From NCBI RefSeq assembly GCF_019039255.1, contig NZ_CP077062.1:992001-1056000 (forward strand): a stretch of 64,000 nt of DNA, given 5' to 3'. Below the pieces are notes generated by a model. That model saw only the letters and a list, made by a program, of their open reading frames with translations, made no database searches and had not been told where the DNA came from. Made by a program: the position numbers and the translations under genes. Numbering within the stretch: the first letter of the stretch is position 1; the number at the start of each line of letters is the position of its first letter. Below are positions 2,662 to 59,857 of the stretch, piece after piece. This stretch comes from Nocardioides panacis (GTDB lineage Bacteria; Actinomycetota; Actinomycetes; Propionibacteriales; Nocardioidaceae).

Positions 2662-3751
2662 GTGTCCACCACGCACGCGGTGTTCCACCCGCTGTCCGTC
2701 GCCTCGATCGAGCCGCTCACCGACGACTCCGTGGCGATCACGTTCGCGGTGCCCGACGAGCTGCGCGAGGACTACGCGTTCAGCCACGGCCAGCACCTCA
2801 CCGTGCGCACCGAGCTGGCCGGCGACGACGTACGCCGCAACTACTCGATCTGCTCGGCCGCGTCCTCCGGGGTGCTCCGGGTCGCGGTCAAGCGGCTGCC
2901 GGGCGGGGCGTTCTCCGAGCACGCGCTCGACGTGCTGCGGCCCGGCGACGTGCTCGACGTGATGACCCCGTCCGGCCGGTTCTTCACCGAGCTCGACCCG
3001 GCGCACCGCAAGCACTACGTGTGCGTCGCGGCCGGCTCGGGGATCACCCCGATCCTGAGCATCGTGGCCAGCACGCTGGAGGCCGAGCCGCTGTCGTCGG
3101 TGACGCTGGTGTACGCCAACCGGACGCACAAGACGGTGATGTTCCTCGAGGAGGTCGAGGACCTCAAGGACGCCTACCCCGACCGGTTCCAGCTGCTGCA
3201 CGTGCTGTCCCGCGAGCCGCAGGAGGTGGAGCTGTTCTCCGGGCGGCTGGACGCCGGGCGGATGGGCCGGATCCTGGACGGCCTGCTGCCCCCCCGACAC
3301 CGTCGACGAGTGGTTCCTGTGCGGGCCGTTCGAGATGGTCTCCGACCTGCGCAAGCTGCTGGTCAGCGAGGGCGTGCCCAAGAAGGCGATCCACGCCGAG
3401 GTGTTCCACGTCGAGTCCGCGTCGTCCGGGCCGCCGGTCCGTCGTGCGCCCGTCGAGACCACCGACGCCGCGGGGGCGCACGTCACCATCACCCTGGACG
3501 GGCGGACCTCCACGTTCCGGCTGCCCACCGACGGGCCGGCCGTGCTGGACGCGGCGCTCGAGGTGCGCGCCGACGCGCCGTTCGCCTGCAAGGGCGGCGT
3601 GTGCGGGACCTGCCGCGCCAAGGTGCTGGAGGGCACCGTGGAGATGGACACCAACTGGGCCCTCGAGCCCGAGGAGGTCCAGCGCGGCTACGTGCTGACC
3701 TGCCAGTCGCACCCGACCTCGGAGTCCGTCGTCCTCGACTACGACGCCTGA
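2662..3751 (+). CDS. paaE: Phenylacetyl-CoA epoxidase reductase PaaE (frameshifted in this sequence)
   Basis: NAD(P)H-dependent reductase that passes electrons to PaaAC. Order of domains: an FAD domain of the ferredoxin-reductase type (R-N-Y-S-I-C-S near residue 55), an NAD(P) domain (G-S-G-I-T-P-I), then a plant-type 2Fe-2S ferredoxin (C-K-G-G-V-C-G-T-C and a distal C in L-T-C-Q-S). The frame breaks at a run of seven C at 3289-3295. Removing one C restores [11 protein letters not shown] and a 362-residue protein of normal length. As printed, the first part runs out of frame into thyA and the ferredoxin part appears as a separate frame from about 3335. The interdomain linker holds a V-E-T-T segment (see repeats). 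Most likely a sequence error, less likely a real inactivation. Confidence 0.88.
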
Positions 3752-13937: not shown

Positions 13938-15949
13938 GCGCAGCCATGCCCCGACCGTCCGACCTCGACCACCGGGACACCGGGACGAACGGCCACGACG
14001 ACACCGTCGTGGCCGGGACCCCGGTCGTCGTACGCCGCAACGCCGGCCTCGCCGCGCTGGTCGGCGCCGGCGCCTCGGCGATCGCCATCGCCTACCTGTG
14101 GCGGGCCACCCAGTCCGCCGCGCCGCTCGACTGGGCACTCTGCCTGGTGATGGCGGCCGTCGCCGGGATGTACCTCGCGCACCTCGTCGACGCCCGCACC
14201 CCGCTGCTGGTCGCCGACGACCTCGGGGTCCGCATCCGGCTGGGCAACCAGTGGCGCGGGCTGCCCTGGGACGCGGTGGACCGCGTCGTCGTGCAGCCCC
14301 GCCGCGGGCTGTTCCGCGACGGGCGGCTGGTGTTCGCGCCGCACAGCCTGTCCCGCGCCCTCGACGGCCTCGAGCCGCGCGGCCGCCGGGCGGCCACCCT
14401 GAACCAGAAGATGTACGGCGCCGCGCTGGCCGTCCCGATGGGCCTGACCACCCGCGTCTCCGCGCACGGCCAGGAGCTCGCCGACGGCCTCGCGGCACTC
14501 GCGCACGGCCGCGCCGACGTGGTCGTCGTGACCCCGACCCCCGAACCGACCCCCGAGCCGACCGCCGACCCGGCGCCTCTGGCGGCCTCCCGGGCGGCCG
14601 AGCCGGCCCCGCGGGTGGCCGAGCCGGCGCCTCTGGCGGCCTCCCCGGTGACCGAGCCCGCCTCCCGGGTGGTCGAGCCTGTCGAGACCACTCCTGACAC
14701 CGACACCGACACCGCCACCGACGCGGACCGTGCCCCGCGGCGCAGCCTGCTCGGCGGGATCGGGACGATCGTGTCCCGGGTCGCCAAGGGCCGAAGCCAC
14801 GACCTGGACGCCGACCACGACGAGGACGCCCCCGACGAGCCGACCGAGGACGGGTCGGCCGAGCAGCCCGAGACCGAGCGGCCGGTCGCCCCGGCGGCCC
14901 GCTCCGCCGTGCCCCTGCGGGACACCCGCCCGGCGCTGCGTGCGCAGGTCACCCGGGACACCCCGGCGACCGTGCTCGGCAACGTGGCGCTGCACCCCGA
15001 CCGGTACGACGCCGACGGCCGTCGCCGCACGCCGCTGCCCGAGGGCCGCCAGCTGCGCCGCCAGGGCAGCGTCGACCTGGAGTTCGAGGCGGCCCCGTCC
15101 GCGTCGGTCTTCGAGTCCGGCCGCGTCCGCCCGATCTCCACGCTCGGCGAGCCCGTCGACGCGCTGGTCATCGACGACTTCGTCACCGAGCCGGCCTACG
15201 ACCCGGTGATCGGCCCCGAGCTGGCCGCCGCGCGCGTCCGGGTCGGGCTGAGCGTCGACGACCTGGCCGACCGGACCCGGATCCGCCCGCACGTGATCGA
15301 GTCCATCGAGGTCGACGACTTCGCGCCGTGCGGCGGGGACTTCTACGCCCGCGGCCACCTGCGCACGCTGGCGCGGGTGCTGGGCAAGGACCCGGCACCG
15401 CTGCTCCAGCAGTTCGACGACCGCTACGCGACCGCACCGATCAACGCCCGCCGGGTGTTCGAGGCCGAGCTGGCGACCGGGATGACCGGCAGCATGCGCA
15501 GCACCGTCGGCGGCCCGAACTGGGCGCTGCTGGTGGGGGTCGTCCTCGCCCTGGTGATGACCTGGGGTGTCGTGCGGCTGTTCGCGGCCGAGCCGGCCGA
15601 GCTGCTGCAGAACCCGACCCCGGTGCTGAACGGGTCGGCCGGCGTCGGCGCCGCCGGCACCGGCCGCGCCGTGGCCCCCGCTCCCGCCGCCCAGCCGATC
15701 CGGCTCACGCTGGTCGGCGCGCAGGCCGGCTCCAAGGGCGTGGTGGTCCGCAACGGCTCGGGCGAGGTCGTCTGGGCCGGCGAGATCGTGCTCGGCGAGA
15801 AGCGCACCGTCGAGGCGGTCCCGCCCGTCAAGGTCACGGCCCGCGACGCCGGCGCCCTCGAGGCCCGGGTCAACGGCAAGGACCGGGGCTCCCTCGGCGA
15901 GCTGGGCCAGCCCGGCCGCCGTACGTTCCACCGGCCCGCCTCCCGCTGA
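13934..15949 (+). CDS. RodZ-like helix-turn-helix membrane protein with extra N-terminal membrane/PH-like region
   Basis: A 671-residue composite protein directly after ftsK. The C-terminal half is RodZ-like: an HTH domain (L-A-A-A-R-V-R-V-G-L-S-V-D-D-L-A-D-R-T-R-I-R), one membrane helix (W-A-L-L-V-G-V-V-L-A-L-V-M-T), then an extracytoplasmic DUF4115-type beta domain. The first 200 residues add two membrane helices and a domain resembling bacterial PH domains (D-D-L-G-V-R-I-R-L-G-N-Q-W-R). A 200-residue linker of A/P/E/T repeats joins them and includes the peptide V-V-E-P-V-E-T-T encoded by a dispersed repeat. GTG at 13934 follows a strong AGGAGG; ATG at 13946 is an alternative. The role is probably cell shape or division, inferred from RodZ and the ftsK linkage. 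Confidence 0.75.
   Translation: MSAAMPRPSDLDHRDTGTNGHDDTVVAGTPVVVRRNAGLAALVGAGASAIAIAYLWRATQSAAPLDWALCLVMAAVAGMYLAHLVDARTPLLVADDLGVRIRLGNQWRGLPWDAVDRVVVQPRRGLFRDGRLVFAPHSLSRALDGLEPRGRRAATLNQKMYGAALAVPMGLTTRVSAHGQELADGLAALAHGRADVVVVTPTPEPTPEPTADPAPLAASRAAEPAPRVAEPAPLAASPVTEPASRVVEPVETTPDTDTDTATDADRAPRRSLLGGIGTIVSRVAKGRSHDLDADHDEDAPDEPTEDGSAEQPETERPVAPAARSAVPLRDTRPALRAQVTRDTPATVLGNVALHPDRYDADGRRRTPLPEGRQLRRQGSVDLEFEAAPSASVFESGRVRPISTLGEPVDALVIDDFVTEPAYDPVIGPELAAARVRVGLSVDDLADRTRIRPHVIESIEVDDFAPCGGDFYARGHLRTLARVLGKDPAPLLQQFDDRYATAPINARRVFEAELATGMTGSMRSTVGGPNWALLVGVVLALVMTWGVVRLFAAEPAELLQNPTPVLNGSAGVGAAGTGRAVAPAPAAQPIRLTLVGAQAGSKGVVVRNGSGEVVWAGEIVLGEKRTVEAVPPVKVTARDAGALEARVNGKDRGSLGELGQPGRRTFHRPASR
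14668..14690. repeat. REP-like repeat inside coding sequence (V-E-P-V-E-T-T element)
   Basis: A 23-bp imperfect palindrome with GTGGTC/GACCAC ends lies in the low-complexity linker of the RodZ-like gene and encodes V-V-E-P-V-E-T-T. A close relative lies at 33063-33083 in lhr (opposite reading) and a half-copy at 3452-3462 in the paaE linker. From memory, this family is frequent in Nocardioides-type genomes between and within genes. Confidence 0.5.
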
Positions 15950-21952: not shown

Positions 21953-23423
21953 ATGACTGCTACCCCTGACGCCCTGGCCCCCCCTCACCACCGTCGCGCT
22001 GGTGACGCTCGGCTGCGCCCGCAACGAGGTCGACTCCGAGGAGCTGGCCGGACGGCTCGAGGCGGGCGGCTTCCGCCTGGTCGACGATCCCGAGGACGCG
22101 GACACCGTGATGGTGAACACGTGCGGCTTCGTCGAGGCGGCCAAGAAGGACTCCGTCGACACCCTGCTGGCCGCCTCCGACCTCAAGGCCGAGGGGACCA
22201 CCAAGGCGGTCGTCGCGGTCGGCTGCATGGCCGAGCGCTACGGCAAGGACCTCGCCGAGTCGCTGCCGGAGGCCGACGCCGTGCTGGGCTTCGACGACTA
22301 CCCGGACATCGCCGCCAAGCTGCGCTCGATCCTGGCCGGTGAGAAGCACCACCCGCACACCCCGCAGGACCGGCGCCGGCTGCTGCCGATCACGCCGAGC
22401 GAGCGCGGCTCGGCGGCCGACGCGGTCGTCGTACCCGGGCACACGATCTCCGCCCCCGACCTACCCGTCGGTGCGGCCCCGGACTCCGGCCCCCGTGCCG
22501 TACGTCGCCGGCTGGACGGCGGGCCGATGGCGCCGCTGAAGCTGGCCAGCGGCTGCGACCGGCGCTGCTCGTTCTGCGCGATCCCGTCGTTCCGCGGCTC
22601 GTTCGTGTCGCGCCGGCCCAGCGACGTGCTGCACGAGGCCCGGTGGCTCGGCGAGCAGGGCGTCAAGGAGCTGTTCCTGGTCAGCGAGAACTCCACGTCC
22701 TACGGCAAGGACCTCGGCGACCTGCGGCTCCTCGAGACGCTGCTGCCCGAGCTCGCCGCGGTCGAGGGCGTCGAGCGGGTCCGGGTGTCCTACCTGCAGC
22801 CCGCCGAGACCCGGCCCGGCCTGGTCACCGCGATCGCGTCCACCCCCGGCGTCGCCGCCTACTACGACCTGTCCTTCCAGCACGCGTCGAACGCCGTGCT
22901 GCGCCGGATGCGGCGCTTCGGCGACCCGGAGAGCTTCCTCGGGCTGATCGAGCAGATCCGCACGCAGGCGCCGCTGGCGGGCATCCGCTCCAACGTGATC
23001 GTCGGCTTCCCCGGCGAGACCGAGGACGACCTGAACACGCTGTGCGACTTCCTGGTCGACGCCCGGATGGACGTGGTCGGCGTGTTCGGCTACTCCGACG
23101 AGGACGGCACCGAGGCCGCGGCGTACGACGGCAAGCTCGACGAGGACGAGATCCGCGACCGCACCGAGCACGTGACGCGGCTGGTCGAGGAGCTCACCTC
23201 CCAGCGCGCCGAGGACCGGATCGGCGAGCGGGTCGAGGTGCTGCTGGAGTCCCTGGCCGAGGCCGGCGACGAGGCGGAGGGCCGAGCGGTCCACCAGGGC
23301 CCGGAGGTGGACGGTACGACGACCGTGGCCGGCCTGCCCGCGGACGCCAGGGTCGGCGACATCGTCAGCGCGCTGGTCGTCGCCTCGGACGGTGCGGACC
23401 TCGTCGCCGAGGTGACCGCGTGA
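21953..23423 (+). CDS. rimO: Ribosomal protein S12 methylthiotransferase RimO (5' frameshift in this sequence)
   Basis: Radical-SAM enzyme that methylthiolates an aspartate of ribosomal protein S12. An N-terminal UPF0004 domain has three cysteines (L-G-C-A-R-N, N-T-C-G-F, V-G-C-M-A). The radical-SAM motif C-x3-C-x2-C is C-D-R-R-C-S-F-C, and a TRAM domain is at the end. As printed, no start codon gives the full N-terminus: the frame has a stop at 21954, and the first start is a GTG at 22002 that would remove the first beta strand. Deleting one C from the seven-C run at 21978-21984 joins ATG 21953 to the frame and gives [21 protein letters not shown], about 489 residues. CATACT at 21936-21941 is a likely -10. 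It overlaps pgsA by 4 nt. Confidence 0.9.
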
Positions 23424-24040
23424 CCCAGGCGCCCGAGCACAAGCCGACCAACTGGAACCTCCCCAACGCGCTGACCACGCTGCGGATCGTGATGGTGCCG
23501 TTCTTCGGCTGGGCGCTGCTCGTCGACGACGGCTCGTCGGTGCTGTGGCGGTGCATCGCCTGGCTGCTGTTCGCGGTGGCGATGATCACCGACAAGGTCG
23601 ACGGCGACATCGCCCGCAGCCGCAACCTGGTCACGAACTTCGGCAAGATCGCCGACCCGATCGCGGACAAGGCGCTGACCGGGATGGCGTTCGTCGGACT
23701 GTCCGTCATCGGCGACATCTGGTGGTGGGTGACGATCCTGGTGCTGGTCCGCGAGTGGGGGATCACCCTGCTGCGGCTCTGGGTGATCCGGCACGGCGTG
23801 ATGGCCGCCGGCCGCGGCGGCAAGCTCAAGACGGTGCTGCAGACCTTGGCCCTGGGCCTGTTCATCCTGCCGATCCGGATCCTCCAGGACGACTGGGGCG
23901 TGGCCGGCGACGTGCTCTGGGGCCTCGCGGTCGTGCTGATGGTCGCCGCGGTGACGCTGACCGTGGTCACCGGCCTGGACTACGTCGTGAAGGCGCTCGC
24001 CGTCCGTCGCGACGGCCGGTCCTCGGTCGGCACCAGCTGA
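23420..24040 (+). CDS. pgsA: CDP-diacylglycerol-glycerol-3-phosphate 3-phosphatidyltransferase
   Basis: Integral membrane CDP-alcohol phosphatidyltransferase, probably making phosphatidylglycerol phosphate from CDP-diacylglycerol. The 206-residue protein has the catalytic signature D-x2-D-G-x2-A-R-x8-G-x3-D-x3-D, seen as D-K-V-D-G-D-I-A-R through G-K-I-A-D-P-I-A-D near residues 58-82, and several membrane helices. The GTG at 23420 overlaps the rimO stop, so the two are coupled. The rimO-pgsA-cinA order is conserved in actinobacteria; here a repeat array and a GH15 gene separate pgsA from cinA. Other family members (PIS, cardiolipin synthase) share the signature, so the exact acceptor is from synteny. 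Confidence 0.9.
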
Positions 24041-24063
24041 TCCGACCGGACGTGGTCGTCGTC

Positions 24064-24317
24064 GACCCGGGTCCCAGTTCACCCCGACCCGGGTCTGAGT
24101 TCATGTCGACCCGGGTCTGAATGCATGTCGACCCGGGTCTGAGCGCACCCCGACCCGGGTCCCAGTTCATGTCGACCCGGGTCTGAGTGCACGTCGACCC
24201 GGGTCGGGGTGAACCAAGGCCCGGGTCGAGGTCACATAAGGCCCGGGTCGGGGTGAACCAAGGCTCGGGTCGAGATCACATAAGGCCCGGGTCGGCGGGG
24301 GCCCGGAGGCCCGGGTC
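24064..24317. repeat. 22-bp tandem repeat array, two opposed blocks
   Basis: Eleven units lie at an exact 22-bp step (first bases 24064, 24086, 24108 and so on to 24284), and a twelfth follows after 24 bp at 24308. Each begins with GACCCGGGTC or GGCCCGGGTC (one copy GGCTCGGGTC) followed by a 12-bp variable part. Units 1-6 have spacers such as CCAGTTCACCCC and TGAGTTCATGTC. Units 7-10 alternate GGGGTGAACCAA and GAGGTCACATAA. The unit-1 spacer read backwards starts GGGGTGAAC, so left and right blocks are in opposite orientation. The array fills the gap between convergent pgsA and GH15 genes, ending 2 bp before the GH15 stop. Because 22 is not a multiple of 3, the repeated TGA/TAA triplets shift frame from unit to unit. 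Function unknown; terminator or insulator is a guess. Confidence 0.9.
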
Positions 24318-24319
24318 GG

Positions 24320-26137
24320 TCAGTGGTCGGCGCGGGTGGCCCTCGTGCCTCCGCCGTCGCGGCCCTCGGCCCGCTCGAGCTGGTTGGCCGCGCCGACCAG
24401 CGTCAGGTGCGAGAACGCCTGCGGGAAGTTGCCGATGAAGCGCCGTGCCCCGACGTCGTACTCCTCGGAGAGCAGGCCCACGTCGTTGGGGAGCTCCAGC
24501 AGCCGCTGCATCAGCGCGTGCGCGTCGTCGAGCCGGCCCGCGTGCACGTAGGCCTCGACCAGCCAGAACGAGCAGGCCAGGAACGGGTGCTCGTCGCCGG
24601 GGAGCCCGTCGACGCCGGACCCGGTGCGGTAGCGCAGCAGCAGCCCGTCGCGCATCAGGTCCTCCTCGACGGCCTTGATGGTGCCGAGCATCCGCGGGTC
24701 GTCGCCCTCGATGAAGCCGACGTCGGAGAGCACCAGCAGCGAGGCGTCGACCTCGTCGGTGTCGTAGTGCTGGGTGAAGGTGTTGCGACCCGGGTCGTAG
24801 CCGTGGGCGAGCACCTCGTCGCGGACCTTTTCGCGCAGCGTCCGCCACTCCTCGACCGGGCCGTCGAGGCCGTGCCTCTCGACCGCGGCGATGGCCCGGT
24901 CGAAGGCGACCCACACCATCACCCGGGAGTGCGTGAACCTCCGCTGCGGGCCGCGGATCTCCCACAGCCCGTTGTCGGGCTCGTCCCAGTGCCGGGCGAG
25001 CTCCTCGATGAGCACCCGCTGCAGCGACCAGGAGTCCGCGTCCTCCTCGGCGCCGAGGGAGCGGGCCATCTCCAGGGCGATCATCACCTCGCCGAGCACG
25101 TCGGTCTGGCGCTGCCTCACCGCGCCGTTGCCGACGCGTACGGGGGTGGAGCCGGCGTAGCCCGGGAGGTGGTCGAGCGTGCGCTCCTCGAGCTCCCGGC
25201 CGCCGTCCACGGCGTACATGATCTGCAGGTCCTGGGGGTCACCGGCCGCCGCGCGCAGCAGCCAGCTGCGCCACAGCAGCGCCTCCTCGTCGTACCCCGA
25301 CTCCAGCAGCGCCTCGAGCGTCAGCGAGGCGTCGCGCAGCCAGCAGTACCGGTAGTCCCAGTTGCGCTCGCCGCCGAGCTCCTCGGGCAGCGACGTGGAG
25401 ACCGCCGCGACGATGCCGCCGGTGCCGCCGTGGGTGAGCAGCCGCAGGGTCACGAGGGAGCGCACCACGTGGTCACGGTAGGGCCCCTCGTAGGTGCACT
25501 TCGCGACCCAGGCCTCGGACCTGGCGATGGTCTCCTCGATCCGGGACTCGTACGCGACCGGTTCGGGCAGCGGGTGGTGGGAGGGCACCCAGGTGGTGGA
25601 GAACGTCATCTCCTCGCCGGCGTGCACGTCGAACTCGTCCACGTGCCGGCCGTCCTCGGCGACCGGCAGCCGGTGCCCGCGCAGGATCAGCCGGTCCGGG
25701 CCCGCGACCGCGGTGATCACCTCGGCGCCGTGCATGTCCTGACGGCGCACCCAGGGCCGGATCTTCCCGTAGCCGAGCCGGACGATCCACTCGTGCCGCA
25801 TCGTGACCGTGCCCTCCAGGCCGATCACCCGGCGGACGATGTCGGCGCGGTGGTCGCCGATCGGCATCAGGTCCAGGATCGTCACGGCTCCGGTGCCGGT
25901 GCGCCACGTGGTCTCGAGCACCGCGCTGTCCCCGACGTAGCGACGGCTGCACTCCGCCCCGGCGTCCTTCGGGCCGAGCAGCCAGCGCCCGTGCTCCGGG
26001 CCGCCGAGGAGCGCGGCGAAGCAGGCGGGGGAGTCGAAGCGGGGCAGGCACAGCCAGTCGACCGACCCGTCCTTGCCGACCAGCGCGGCCGTGCCCGTGT
26101 CGCCCAGCACCGCGTAGTCCTCGATCGGGAGAGCCAT
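24320..26137 (-). CDS. Glycoside hydrolase family 15 protein (glucoamylase/trehalase-like)
   Basis: Cytoplasmic GH15 enzyme of 605 residues with no signal peptide. The N-terminal beta-sandwich begins I-E-D-Y-A-V-L-G-D-T-G-T-A-A-L-V-G-K-D-G-S-V-D-W-L-C-L-P-R-F-D-S. The (alpha/alpha)6 catalytic barrel carries N-W-D-Y-R-Y-C-W-L-R-D-A and the acidic motif G-L-W-E-I-R-G. GH15 proteins of this form in mycobacteria hydrolyse trehalose; others act on maltose or isomaltose, so the substrate is open. The start at 26137 has TACGGT 6 nt upstream on the minus strand. It interrupts the usual pgsA-cinA adjacency, is divergent from cinA, and its 3' end abuts the repeat array. Confidence 0.88.
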   Translation of the reverse strand: MALPIEDYAVLGDTGTAALVGKDGSVDWLCLPRFDSPACFAALLGGPEHGRWLLGPKDAGAECSRRYVGDSAVLETTWRTGTGAVTILDLMPIGDHRADIVRRVIGLEGTVTMRHEWIVRLGYGKIRPWVRRQDMHGAEVITAVAGPDRLILRGHRLPVAEDGRHVDEFDVHAGEEMTFSTTWVPSHHPLPEPVAYESRIEETIARSEAWVAKCTYEGPYRDHVVRSLVTLRLLTHGGTGGIVAAVSTSLPEELGGERNWDYRYCWLRDASLTLEALLESGYDEEALLWRSWLLRAAAGDPQDLQIMYAVDGGRELEERTLDHLPGYAGSTPVRVGNGAVRQRQTDVLGEVMIALEMARSLGAEEDADSWSLQRVLIEELARHWDEPDNGLWEIRGPQRRFTHSRVMVWVAFDRAIAAVERHGLDGPVEEWRTLREKVRDEVLAHGYDPGRNTFTQHYDTDEVDASLLVLSDVGFIEGDDPRMLGTIKAVEEDLMRDGLLLRYRTGSGVDGLPGDEHPFLACSFWLVEAYVHAGRLDDAHALMQRLLELPNDVGLLSEEYDVGARRFIGNFPQAFSHLTLVGAANQLERAEGRDGGGTRATRADH

Positions 26138-54374: not shown

Positions 54375-55214
54375 GTGACCGCCGGGCAGGGTCGGGACGG
54401 CTGCGCGGTCGTGGTGCGCAGCCGGCGGGACGGGTACGCCGTGCTGCGCGAGCGCCGCGAGCCGGGGGAGTCCGTGCAGGGCACTGCGCTGCGTGCGGTG
54501 CAGCGCGCGACCGGGATCGTCGGCGCCGACGTGTGGGCCGTGGACCTGTCGGGTCCGTGGGCGGTGCTCGCGGTCGACGTACCGGACACGGTGCGGGTCG
54601 GGCCGCGTCCCGCCGGGGAACCGCCCGACGACCCGGTCGCTCGGGTGCGGGCGATCCCGTGGGCGACCGTCGCCTTCCGTCCGCTGACCCGGGCCGACCT
54701 CGCGGACGTCGTCACCTGGCAGGCCCAGCCGTACGTCGCCCGCTGGTGGCAGGACGAGGCCCGCGACCTCGCCGCGGCCGAACGACACTACGGCCCGGCG
54801 CTGGACGGCGAGGACCCGACGCGGCTGTGGGTGCTGGAGCTCAACGGCAGGTCGGTGGGGATGCTCCAGGACTACCGGGTCGGCGACCACCCGGAGTACG
54901 CACTGCTGACCGCCAAGCCCGACGCGGTCGGCTTCGACTACCTGATCGGCGACCCGTCGTGGGTGGGCCGGGGGATCGGCACCCGGATGCTCTGGTGCTA
55001 CCTGCGCGACATGGTCTGCCCGCACTACCCGGCGGTCACCGAGCTGTTCGCGGCCCCGGACCACCGCAACGCCGGGTCGCTCCGGGTGCTCGACAAGCTC
55101 GGCTTCGACCGGGGGCTGTGGTTCGACGAGCCGCAGCCCGACGGCCGGGTCGACACCGTGGTCGGGTGCACCCTGGACGTCCCGAGCATCCTGGGTGGAC
55201 CCGGGCCGGGGTGA
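54375..55214 (+). CDS. GNAT acetyltransferase with degenerate NUDIX-like N-terminal domain
   Basis: A 279-residue two-part protein. Residues 1-100 resemble a NUDIX fold (A-V-V-V-R-S-R-R-D-G-Y-A-V-L, R-E-P-G-E-S-V-Q-G-T-A-L-R-A-V) but lack the R-E-x2-E-E catalytic helix. Residues 105-279 are a GNAT domain of the AAC(6')-Ib/RimJ type: F-R-P-L-T-R-A-D-L, W-W-Q-D-E, acetyl-CoA loop V-G-R-G-I-G-T-R-M-L, and N-A-G-S-L-R-V-L-D-K-L-G-F. The substrate is unknown; the similarity to aminoglycoside acetyltransferases does not prove resistance. Its last codons (G-G-P-G-P-G) run into the second 22-bp repeat array. The GTG at 54375 has no clear ribosome site. Confidence 0.78.
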   Translation: MTAGQGRDGCAVVVRSRRDGYAVLRERREPGESVQGTALRAVQRATGIVGADVWAVDLSGPWAVLAVDVPDTVRVGPRPAGEPPDDPVARVRAIPWATVAFRPLTRADLADVVTWQAQPYVARWWQDEARDLAAAERHYGPALDGEDPTRLWVLELNGRSVGMLQDYRVGDHPEYALLTAKPDAVGFDYLIGDPSWVGRGIGTRMLWCYLRDMVCPHYPAVTELFAAPDHRNAGSLRVLDKLGFDRGLWFDEPQPDGRVDTVVGCTLDVPSILGGPGPG

Positions 55215-55282
55215 GCCAAGGCCCGGGTCGGGGTGAACTACTGCCCGGGTCGGGGTGAACTACTGCCCGGGTCGGCGGGGGA
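55198..55282. repeat. 22-bp tandem repeat array, second locus
   Basis: Four units at an exact 22-bp step (55198, 55220, 55242, 55264). The first is GACCCGGGCC, the rest GCCCGGGTC-based, with spacers GGGGTGAGCCAA, GGGGTGAACTAC and GGGGTGAACTAC. The array closes with GGCGGGGG as the 24-kb array does. It has the same family and orientation as the right block of that array. It begins inside the last codons of the acetyltransferase gene and lies before the hotdog gene promoter. Confidence 0.85.
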
Positions 55283-59296: not shown

Positions 59297-59857
59297 ATGC
59301 CTCGCAGCACGAACCCGATCGGCAGGCTGGTCGACGGCGTGAAGGGGACCGCCGCGATCGGCCGGATGGTCGCCGGGCAGGTCGTCCGCACGGCCGTGGC
59401 CGCGGCCGGCGGCGCGGTCCAGGGTGCCGTCGGTGCCGTCGTCGAGCGCGCCGGCCGGGGCAAGGTCGCGCACACCGACGCGCCGTCGCCGCGGGCCACG
59501 TCACCCGCGCAGCTGCGGCCGGTCCCGTCGCCGGCGCCGACCGTCGCGCCGACCCCGGCCCCCGCCCCGACGAAGAAGGCCCCGACCAAGAAGGCCCCGG
59601 CCAAGAAGGCCCCGGCCGCGAAGAAGACGCCCGCCGTGAAGAAGACGGCGTCCCCGGCCGACGTGGCCAAGACCGCGGCGAAGAAGGCCTCCGCCCCGCA
59701 GCCGCCCGCCAAGAAGACCGCCGCGAAGAAGACCGCCGCGAAGAAGGCGCCGGCCAGGAAGAGCGCGCCGACGACGTCCGCACCGGGCGACCGCCTGCCG
59801 CCCCGCACGGCACCGGGGACCCCGTCGACGCCGGAGCGGAACCCCGACGCCGGCTGA
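59297..59857 (+). CDS. Lysine/alanine-rich histone-like protein
   Basis: A 186-residue low-complexity protein. The first 60 residues are Ala/Val/Gly-rich and amphipathic (I-G-R-L-V-D-G-V-K-G-T-A-A-I-G-R-M). Residues 75-170 are K-K-A-P, A-K-K-A and K-K-T-A repeats like the C-terminal tail of actinobacterial HupB or histone H1-like proteins. No HU core is present. It may bind DNA or RNA through charge alone. The ATG at 59297 has GGAAGGG upstream, unlike the leaderless neighbours. Divergent from gluA. Confidence 0.7.
   Translation: MPRSTNPIGRLVDGVKGTAAIGRMVAGQVVRTAVAAAGGAVQGAVGAVVERAGRGKVAHTDAPSPRATSPAQLRPVPSPAPTVAPTPAPAPTKKAPTKKAPAKKAPAAKKTPAVKKTASPADVAKTAAKKASAPQPPAKKTAAKKTAAKKAPARKSAPTTSAPGDRLPPRTAPGTPSTPERNPDAG

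What the first reader, a model, noticed from the sequence alone, without database searches (positions are those of the whole stretch)
24064..24317. 22-bp palindrome-centred tandem array with two opposed blocks
Eleven units repeat at exactly 22 bp with a CCCGGG palindrome core, and a twelfth follows after 24 bp. The first six units read in the opposite direction to the later ones (spacer GGGGTGAAC is the reverse complement of the unit-1 spacer). The array fills the whole gap between convergent pgsA and GH15 genes. Units 7-10 alternate two spacer types. It is not a REP, CRISPR or known element that I recognise. TGA/TAA triplets recur in shifting frames, so read-through translation would be stopped; it could also serve as a terminator, insulator or protein-binding array.
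Basis: seen in the sequence. Interest (0 to 1): 0.75.

Follow-up and report, generated by a model that had tools for sequence, protein, structure and literature searches.

The report
Stop-codon-linked 22-bp palindromic repeat blocks
The array is one of about forty dispersed sets of 22-base repeats that mostly sit just behind genes in this bacterium and may act as end-of-gene barriers; it is a real, species-specific relative of known bacterial intergenic palindromes.

Summary
Confirmed: 12 CCCGGG-type cores at 24064-24319, eleven in exact 22-bp register and one after 24 bp, in two opposed blocks. Not unique: the window holds a second array (55200-55275) and 35 examined loci of the 4.9-Mb genome gave 41 arrays. 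Of 341 family genomes only this one and Nocardioides jejuensis exceed three hits. Blocks are linked to gene ends: 45 of 55 have a same-strand gene upstream, 31 of these 45 start within -20..+15 nt of its stop, 9 overlapping it (TGACCCGGG); 14 of 14 two-block arrays point inwards. Opposite blocks of one array are no more alike than blocks of different arrays. Core sites differ in 5%, spacer sites in 30% of adjacent units. Best reading: a species-specific REP/BIME-like variant at gene ends, most likely a two-way 3'-end barrier. The mechanism is inferred: no U-tract, and in 46 of 55 blocks the block-sense RNA is less stable than the antisense. The same core and spacing recur in some Bacteroidales and Hormoscilla; descent, transfer or convergence is open.

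The parts
23438..24040 (+). pgsA-like CDP-alcohol phosphatidyltransferase gene (start approximate); its stop precedes block 1 by 23 nt
   Evidence: Pfam PF01066 5.8e-45; gene call 23420-24040; distance
24041..24319 (.). whole spacer between the two convergent stop codons (279 bp)
24064..24195 (+). block 1: six 22-bp units in pgsA sense (GACCCGGGTC plus spacers such as CCAGTTCACCCC)
24196..24205 (.). central palindromic core GACCCGGGTC where the two blocks meet
24206..24293 (-). block 2: four units in GH15 sense (on the + strand GGGGTGAACCAAGGCCCGGGTC alternating with GAGGTCACATAAGGCCCGGGTC)
24307..24318 (-). last core (AGGCCCGGGTCG), 24 bp after the previous one, directly before the GH15 stop
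24320..26137 (-). GH15 (trehalase/glucoamylase-type) gene, start approximate; its stop lies next to the last core
   Evidence: Pfam PF00723 6.3e-79 and PF19291 on 24320-26110; gene call
55200..55275 (-). second array of the same family in the window: four cores at 22 bp (three units by the weight matrix); by my gene calls it is antisense to both flanking genes, an exception to the orientation rule

Best explanation
A species-specific, dispersed family of tandem palindromic repeats (22-bp unit, gene-sense consensus GACCCGGGCCTAAGTTCACGTC) that occupies the spacer directly behind stop codons. A block usually belongs to the gene it follows; at convergent junctions two separately gained blocks face each other. 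Shown by sequence: dispersal, placement, orientation bias, core constraint. Inferred: the palindromic cores pair with one another in the transcript (or as supercoiled DNA), giving serial stem-loops, or one long hairpin where two blocks face each other, which stop or pause RNA polymerase and insulate converging genes. Blocks probably grow and shrink by slippage; how a first unit reaches a new gene end is unknown.
For: 45 of 55 blocks have a same-strand gene upstream; 31 of these 45 start -20..+15 nt from its stop, 9 at exactly -2 (TGACCCGGG). Because any block in a convergent spacer has a same-strand gene upstream, the independent tests are: 14 of 14 two-block arrays run + then -; 25 of 32 blocks in convergent spacers lie nearer their own stop than the opposite one; 13 blocks agree and 6 disagree in codirectional spacers. 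21 of 41 arrays lie between convergent genes, against 56 of 343 gene pairs in a 384-kb sample, p 2.7e-7. Core positions 1-8 differ in 5.4% and spacer positions 11-22 in 29.7% of 181 adjacent unit pairs. The window array folds as one long hairpin, -186.2 kcal/mol, z -11.1 on +, and z -7.9 on -. Orthologous sites: in G005 only 12 bp, GACCCGGGTGGG, lie between the two stops. At the junction of array L052 the sister species G001 has an unrelated hairpin 4 nt behind the same stop codon, a member of a family with 17+12 hits in G001 (control 3+1) and 0-2 in each of the six others, seen within about 22 nt behind a stop in 6 of 6 inspected copies: different species put different palindromes in the same kind of place.
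Against: No U-tract terminator is predicted. In 46 of 55 blocks the block-sense RNA folds less stably than the antisense RNA, as expected from the A.C mismatch of the commonest core GACCCGGGCC; in N. jejuensis the reverse holds in 14 of 15, in two Bacteroidales genomes it is mixed, 4 of 7 and 6 of 8. 16 of 41 arrays are between codirectional and 4 between divergent genes; divergent spacers are not significantly depleted, p 0.65. 10 of 55 blocks have no same-strand gene upstream, among them the second array of the window and one block in each of 3 two-block arrays between codirectional genes (L032, L041, L150). No expression data were available.
Confidence: 0.45

Rival explanations
1. A selfish or neutral REP/MIRU-like repeat: it spreads by an unknown copying process, survives where insertion is harmless (just behind stop codons), and grows by slippage; it does nothing for the host.
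For: Extreme patchiness: 2 of 341 family genomes with more than three hits and none of the 6 other same-genus genomes; spacers share a consensus among arrays (45% identity between arrays), which implies dispersal from a common unit; sister G001 carries another dispersed palindrome.
Against: Core conserved five to six times better than spacer (the block-finding matrix favours the core somewhat); orientation bias towards gene sense; outside the window 9 of 10 unit hits in 320 kb were intergenic and all 9 in arrays; no Y1/RAYT transposase detected; no match in plasmids, phages or, for the exact three-unit pattern, viral contigs.
Confidence: 0.3
2. A phased DNA-binding array: a protein (a nucleoid protein, gyrase as proposed for E. 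coli REPs, or an unknown factor) binds each core; 22 bp puts successive cores on nearly the same DNA face; arrays absorb supercoiling or block polymerase between converging genes.
For: 140 of 149 core spacings between 17 and 27 bp in the own genome are exactly 22 bp; 8-bp core constrained, spacer freer; the same core and spacing in unrelated phyla, though both were fixed by the query; convergent junctions enriched; RNA stability in gene sense not maximised.
Against: No candidate protein found; slippage alone also keeps the period; gene-sense orientation is not needed for a DNA-bound protein; the core is asymmetric (GACCCGGGCC) in most units.
Confidence: 0.18
3. A post-transcriptional 3'-UTR element: hairpins right behind the stop codon protect the mRNA 3' end or affect the terminating ribosome, as discussed for E. 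coli REPs within 15 nt of an ORF end.
For: 31 of 45 same-strand blocks start within -20..+15 nt of the stop; the 15-nt class is named in the abstract of PMC12306157.
Against: The block-sense RNA is the less stable strand in 46 of 55 blocks.
Confidence: 0.07

Closest known systems
REP / BIME (GTAG- and CGTC-tagged repetitive extragenic palindromes, RAYT-associated)
   Same: Short palindromic core, many copies, intergenic, mostly behind genes and between convergent or codirectional ORFs, sometimes supplying the stop codon, clusters in opposed orientation (abstract and passages of PMC3733652).
   Different: Regular 22-bp head-to-tail units, no fixed tag (CGTC in 20 of 236 units), no Y1 transposase detected in the genome, no solo unit in a 320-kb sample beyond one coding hit at chance level, blocks biased to gene sense.
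BrickBuilt MITE of Porphyromonas gingivalis
   Same: 23-nt tandem repeats at 19 dispersed intergenic loci of one species (section 5 and first part of section 7 of PMC4596501).
   Different: BrickBuilt has leader and tail with IS5-type terminal inverted repeats; I did not search for such ends around the arrays here, and the sequences were not compared directly.
MIRU of Mycobacterium tuberculosis (recalled, not read)
   Same: Tandem direct repeats at gene ends, overlapping stop codons, in an actinobacterium (recalled).
   Different: MIRU units are much longer (recalled); not compared here.
Intrinsic bidirectional terminators between convergent genes
   Same: Inverted repeats behind stop codons on both strands; stable fold.
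   Different: No U-tract; tandem array instead of one hairpin.

Membership tests
REP/BIME | short palindromic unit in high copy number outside genes | tested here: met
   229 units in 55 blocks from 35 loci examined; 22 of 23 hits in the 384-kb sample intergenic, 13 of them in the window itself
REP/BIME | GTAG or CGTC tag at one end of the unit | tested here: not met
   positions 19-22 vary: GGCC 37, CCCC 33, GGTC 28, CGTC 20 of 236 units
REP/BIME | cognate Y1 (RAYT/TnpA_REP) transposase in the genome | tested here: not met
   PF01797 gave no match in G000 or G171; matches over the cut-off in 3 of 15 genomes searched
REP/BIME | location between convergent or codirectional genes, behind coding regions | tested here: met
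   37 of 41 arrays (21 convergent, 16 codirectional), 4 divergent
CRISPR | identical repeats with unrelated unique spacers | tested here: not met
   spacers within a block are 67% identical on average; cas genes were not searched
intrinsic terminator | G+C-rich hairpin | tested here: met
   window array as RNA, z -11.1 and -7.9
intrinsic terminator | U-tract after the hairpin | tested here: not met
   0 found in 23900-24450; only the window array was scanned
intrinsic terminator | terminates transcription | not testable with these tools
   no RNA data
Rfam RNA families | match at the curated gathering score | tested here: not met
   23800-24500 only; highest bit score 30.7 against a gathering score of 94
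BrickBuilt-type MITE | terminal inverted repeats of an IS family around the tandem part | not tested
   no systematic search for terminal repeats was made

The most novel reading that the evidence does not exclude
GACCCGGG at exact 22-bp phasing behind stop codons is a portable 3'-end code read by one conserved factor, gained independently or by transfer in a few actinobacteria, Bacteroidales and cyanobacteria, where it serves as a modular, slippage-tunable transcription barrier.
Probability: 0.12. Interest if true: 0.8.

Novelty: new variant of a known kind. Interest (0 to 1): 0.5.

Why it matters
It is a clear natural case of one short palindrome colonising dozens of gene ends in one species while the sister species examined have none, or an unrelated one at the same junction. 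That makes it testable whether dispersed palindromes are selfish passengers or replaceable transcription barriers. If the cross-phylum recurrence of core and spacing has a common cause, it would point to an unknown 3'-end factor.

Tried and rejected
CRISPR: rejected, spacers are diverged copies of each other; cas genes not searched. RAYT-driven REP: no Y1 transposase detected in either actinobacterial host. Known RNA family: Rfam gave only sub-threshold matches in 23800-24500. Phage or plasmid origin: no match. A gene shared by array neighbourhoods: all-against-all comparison of stop-to-stop ORFs from the array loci fetched up to then (window not included) gave scattered pairs, neighbourhoods shared by two Bacteroidales genomes or by the two actinobacteria, ORFs that probably run through the repeats themselves (27 members, own genome and a Rubrobacter bin), and one 7-member cluster across own genome, N. 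jejuensis, a Lentisphaeraceae and an Opitutus bin that I did not identify; I could tie none to the arrays. One simple RNA-hairpin rule for all hosts: rejected, the strand bias of stability is opposite in G000 and N. jejuensis. Spacing as proof of function: only weak, because tandem duplication also keeps the period and the search patterns fixed 22 bp. The idea that some Bacteroidales cores are IS5 terminal-repeat tips was noted and not tested. Literature: paper searches brought up no paper that I recognised as describing this repeat; of 98 papers holding one of four 10-mers only the 15 listed titles and abstract starts were seen. Papers were seen as: passages (PMC5771137, PMC3119063, PMC3733652), outline and abstract (PMC12306157), outline, section 5 and part 1 of 2 of section 7 (PMC4596501); the rest only as listings.

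Rows dropped or limits before counts: loci L053 and L157 were examined but gave no block of two units over the score threshold; L001-L030, L140, L168 and L200 repeat other places and were not counted. The 55 blocks include weak ones (for instance L036 at 2531, L039 at 2366, L156). One search left out 6 of 181 adjacent pairs with more than 11 differences and so gave 4.1% and 28%; with all pairs it is 5.4% and 29.7%, which is what I report. One search set aside 6 arrays at locus edges, and its gene calls overlap some N. jejuensis arrays, so its context counts are rough. Gene calls come from a simple codon model of my own. The weight matrix that defines blocks was trained on the same repeats and favours the core. 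Note 21 speaks of a strict strand rule and note 60 of 15 of 15 two-block arrays; the final counts have exceptions and 14 of 14.

Full report
Observation. The array is as described: twelve CCCGGG-type cores in 24064-24319, eleven in exact 22-bp register, the twelfth after 24 bp, first six spacers opposite in sense to the later ones, the later ones alternating in a 44-bp higher-order repeat. It fills most of the 279 bp between the stops of a pgsA-like gene and a GH15 gene. A second array of the same family lies at 55200-55275.

Dispersal in the genome. The window lies in G000, one contig of 4,901,775 bases. CCCGGGTC-N14-CCCGGGTC with up to one mismatch hits 119+110 times against 0+2 for the reversed control. 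From the (capped) hit lists I examined 35 loci: the window, L031-L054 and L150-L159. A weight matrix trained on the repeats found 55 blocks of at least two units, 229 units, which I merged into 41 arrays; L053 and L157 gave none over threshold. In sixteen 20-kb stretches chosen before I knew of arrays in them there were 10 unit hits on both strands, 9 intergenic and in arrays, 1 coding; the window adds 13, all intergenic. A mononucleotide shuffle of the whole 384 kb gave an expectation of 4, so the single coding hit is at chance level.

Link to gene ends. In 45 of 55 blocks the gene upstream in the sense of the block is on the same strand; distances from its stop to the first unit run from -83 to 92 nt, 31 of 45 within -20..+15, 40 of 45 within -20..+30, and 9 exactly -2, where the stop TGA runs into the unit (TGACCCGGG). 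In a convergent spacer either orientation has a same-strand gene upstream, so the independent tests are others: all 14 two-block arrays are + then -; 25 of 32 blocks in convergent spacers lie nearer their own stop; in codirectional spacers 13 blocks agree and 6 disagree. Of the 14 two-block arrays 11 are between convergent genes; in the other 3 (L032, L041, L150) the genes are codirectional and one block has no same-strand gene, so the inward arrangement is not fully explained by genes. By flanking genes, arrays are 21 convergent, 16 codirectional, 4 divergent of 41, against 56, 239 and 48 of 343 sampled pairs; the convergent excess has p 2.7e-7, while divergent spacers are not significantly depleted, p 0.65. 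Further exceptions: the second array of the window and L050 are antisense to both neighbours, and L051, L153, L158 and a weak L036 block lie between divergent genes.

Evolution of the blocks. Between adjacent units of a block, core positions 1-8 differ in 5.4% and spacer positions 11-22 in 29.7% of 181 pairs. Spacer identity is 0.67 within a block, 0.41 with the opposite block of the same array and 0.45 with other arrays. The core is therefore under constraint, blocks are homogenised internally, and the two blocks of a junction do not look like copies of each other. Spacing is exactly 22 bp in 140 of 149 cases between 17 and 27 bp; this alone could come from tandem duplication.

Comparison with relatives. 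Six other genomes of the genus have 0 or 1 hit. Of 341 genomes of the family 33 have a hit, but only G000 (73+65) and G171 (9+14) have more than three; G171 is Nocardioides jejuensis, since its fourth contig has the length and hits of the named record NZ_SJZJ01000004.1. The pgsA/GH15 junction could be read in three of the six relatives by alignment: G005 has 12 bp between the two stops, GACCCGGGTGGG, itself a small palindrome of the same letters; in G006 and G004 76 and 124 bp lie between the aligned gene parts, without an array. In G002 the two genes lie next to each other but the aligned ends overlap and the gap was not resolved; in G001 and G003 the genes are apart or on different contigs. 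At the junction of L052, where G000 has about 340 bp between the genes, G001 has a different hairpin 4 nt behind the same stop. Its arm, with up to two mismatches, gives 17+12 hits in G001 (control 3+1) and 0 to 2 in each of the six others, and 6 of 6 inspected copies begin within about 22 nt of a stop codon. So two sister species carry unrelated dispersed palindromes in the same kind of place, once at the very same junction.

Other taxa. An exact three-unit pattern scanned over the collection of 84,980 species gave 69 loci. Of these, 38 fall in 11 genomes with two or more loci: N. jejuensis 4; seven Bacteroidales genomes (Prevotellaceae, Bacteroidaceae, Parabacteroides and an unnamed Bacteroidales) with 2 to 6 each; two Hormoscilla with 3 each; and one uncultured bin (LaPlata_bin-1558) with 6, whose true period is 11 bp. 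The other 31 are one per genome, many looking like ordinary minisatellites. Whole-genome counts in 12 genomes, G171 and eleven behind loci, were 2 to 45 against controls of 0 to 2; in two of them the count was only 2 and 3. In N. jejuensis 10 of 18 sense blocks have a coding-like stop within 150 nt upstream, 7 of 18 have an antisense gene end downstream (3 have both) and 4 have neither; where the stop is near, the start is typically TGA plus 4-8 nt plus GAGACCCGGG. In Bacteroidales the context was 12 codirectional, 6 convergent, 2 divergent; in Hormoscilla 4, 1 and 1, mostly more than 100 nt from genes; both with rough gene calls. Because core and spacing were fixed by the query, this shows recurrence of the pattern, not homology, and I did not test how many other cores would do the same.

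Mechanism. Read as RNA, the window array is one long interrupted hairpin, -186.2 kcal/mol against -124.3 for shuffles, and also stable on the other strand. Palindromic conserved cores with freer spacers suit core-to-core pairing, and the place behind stops and between convergent genes suits a two-way barrier. Against this, no U-tract follows, and single blocks fold better in antisense in 46 of 55 cases here but better in the GACCCGGG sense in 14 of 15 in N. jejuensis, 4 of 7 in RUI210 and 6 of 8 in Horse_feces128 (orientation there set by the core, not by genes). A protein-bound array or a selfish repeat is therefore not excluded.

What is known. REP repeats sit mainly between convergent and codirectional genes, downstream of coding regions, and GTAG REPs often supply a stop codon (abstract and passages of PMC3733652). 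REPs within 15 nt of an ORF end are treated as a class of their own in the abstract of PMC12306157. BrickBuilt in P. gingivalis shows dispersed 23-nt tandem repeats in a MITE (parts of PMC4596501). The present family lacks the tag and, as far as detected, the transposase of REPs; flanking inverted repeats as in BrickBuilt were not searched for. It is best filed as a new variant of the bacterial extragenic palindromic repeats; it looks like a REP cluster at gene ends but is not shown to be a member of the RAYT-linked REP families.

Noticed in passing
G001 (same genus): L212, L216, L218, L220, L222, L223: A different, G001-specific dispersed hairpin of about 58 bp (arms GAGAGGCCACTTTCCCACC) begins within about 22 nt behind a stop codon in 6 of 6 inspected copies.
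   Followed up: partly
L077, L124, L125 (Parabacteroides), L086 (Tannerellaceae): Here the array is bounded by unique inverted arms that continue the palindrome, with A/T tracts at the ends, like a bidirectional terminator with the array inside it (read by eye).
   Followed up: no
L078, L095, L107, L109, L127, L128 (Hormoscilla): Two Hormoscilla genomes have dispersed 22-bp arrays with a GACCCGGGCGGGGAGAC unit, mostly more than 100 nt from genes by rough gene calls.
   Followed up: no
L164:2772-2988 (N. jejuensis): Two opposed blocks flank a tRNA-Leu gene (2825-2900, minus strand) between convergent genes.
   Followed up: partly
L090, L094, L096, L103, L106, L139: An uncultured bin (LaPlata_bin-1558) has arrays of an 11-bp unit CCCGGGTCTTG, half the period.
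   Followed up: no
window 59564-59766 and 14534-14679: Other tandem repeats of the window: 15/45-bp units (AAGACCGCCGCCAAG), which would code for a Lys/Ala-rich stretch if in frame, and 21/54-bp units.
   Followed up: no
L038:4499-4652 and L031:3176-3263: Some blocks contain drifted, non-palindromic cores (GAGCCGGG, GACCCGGCTC) repeated within the block, so a perfect palindrome is not kept everywhere.
   Followed up: no
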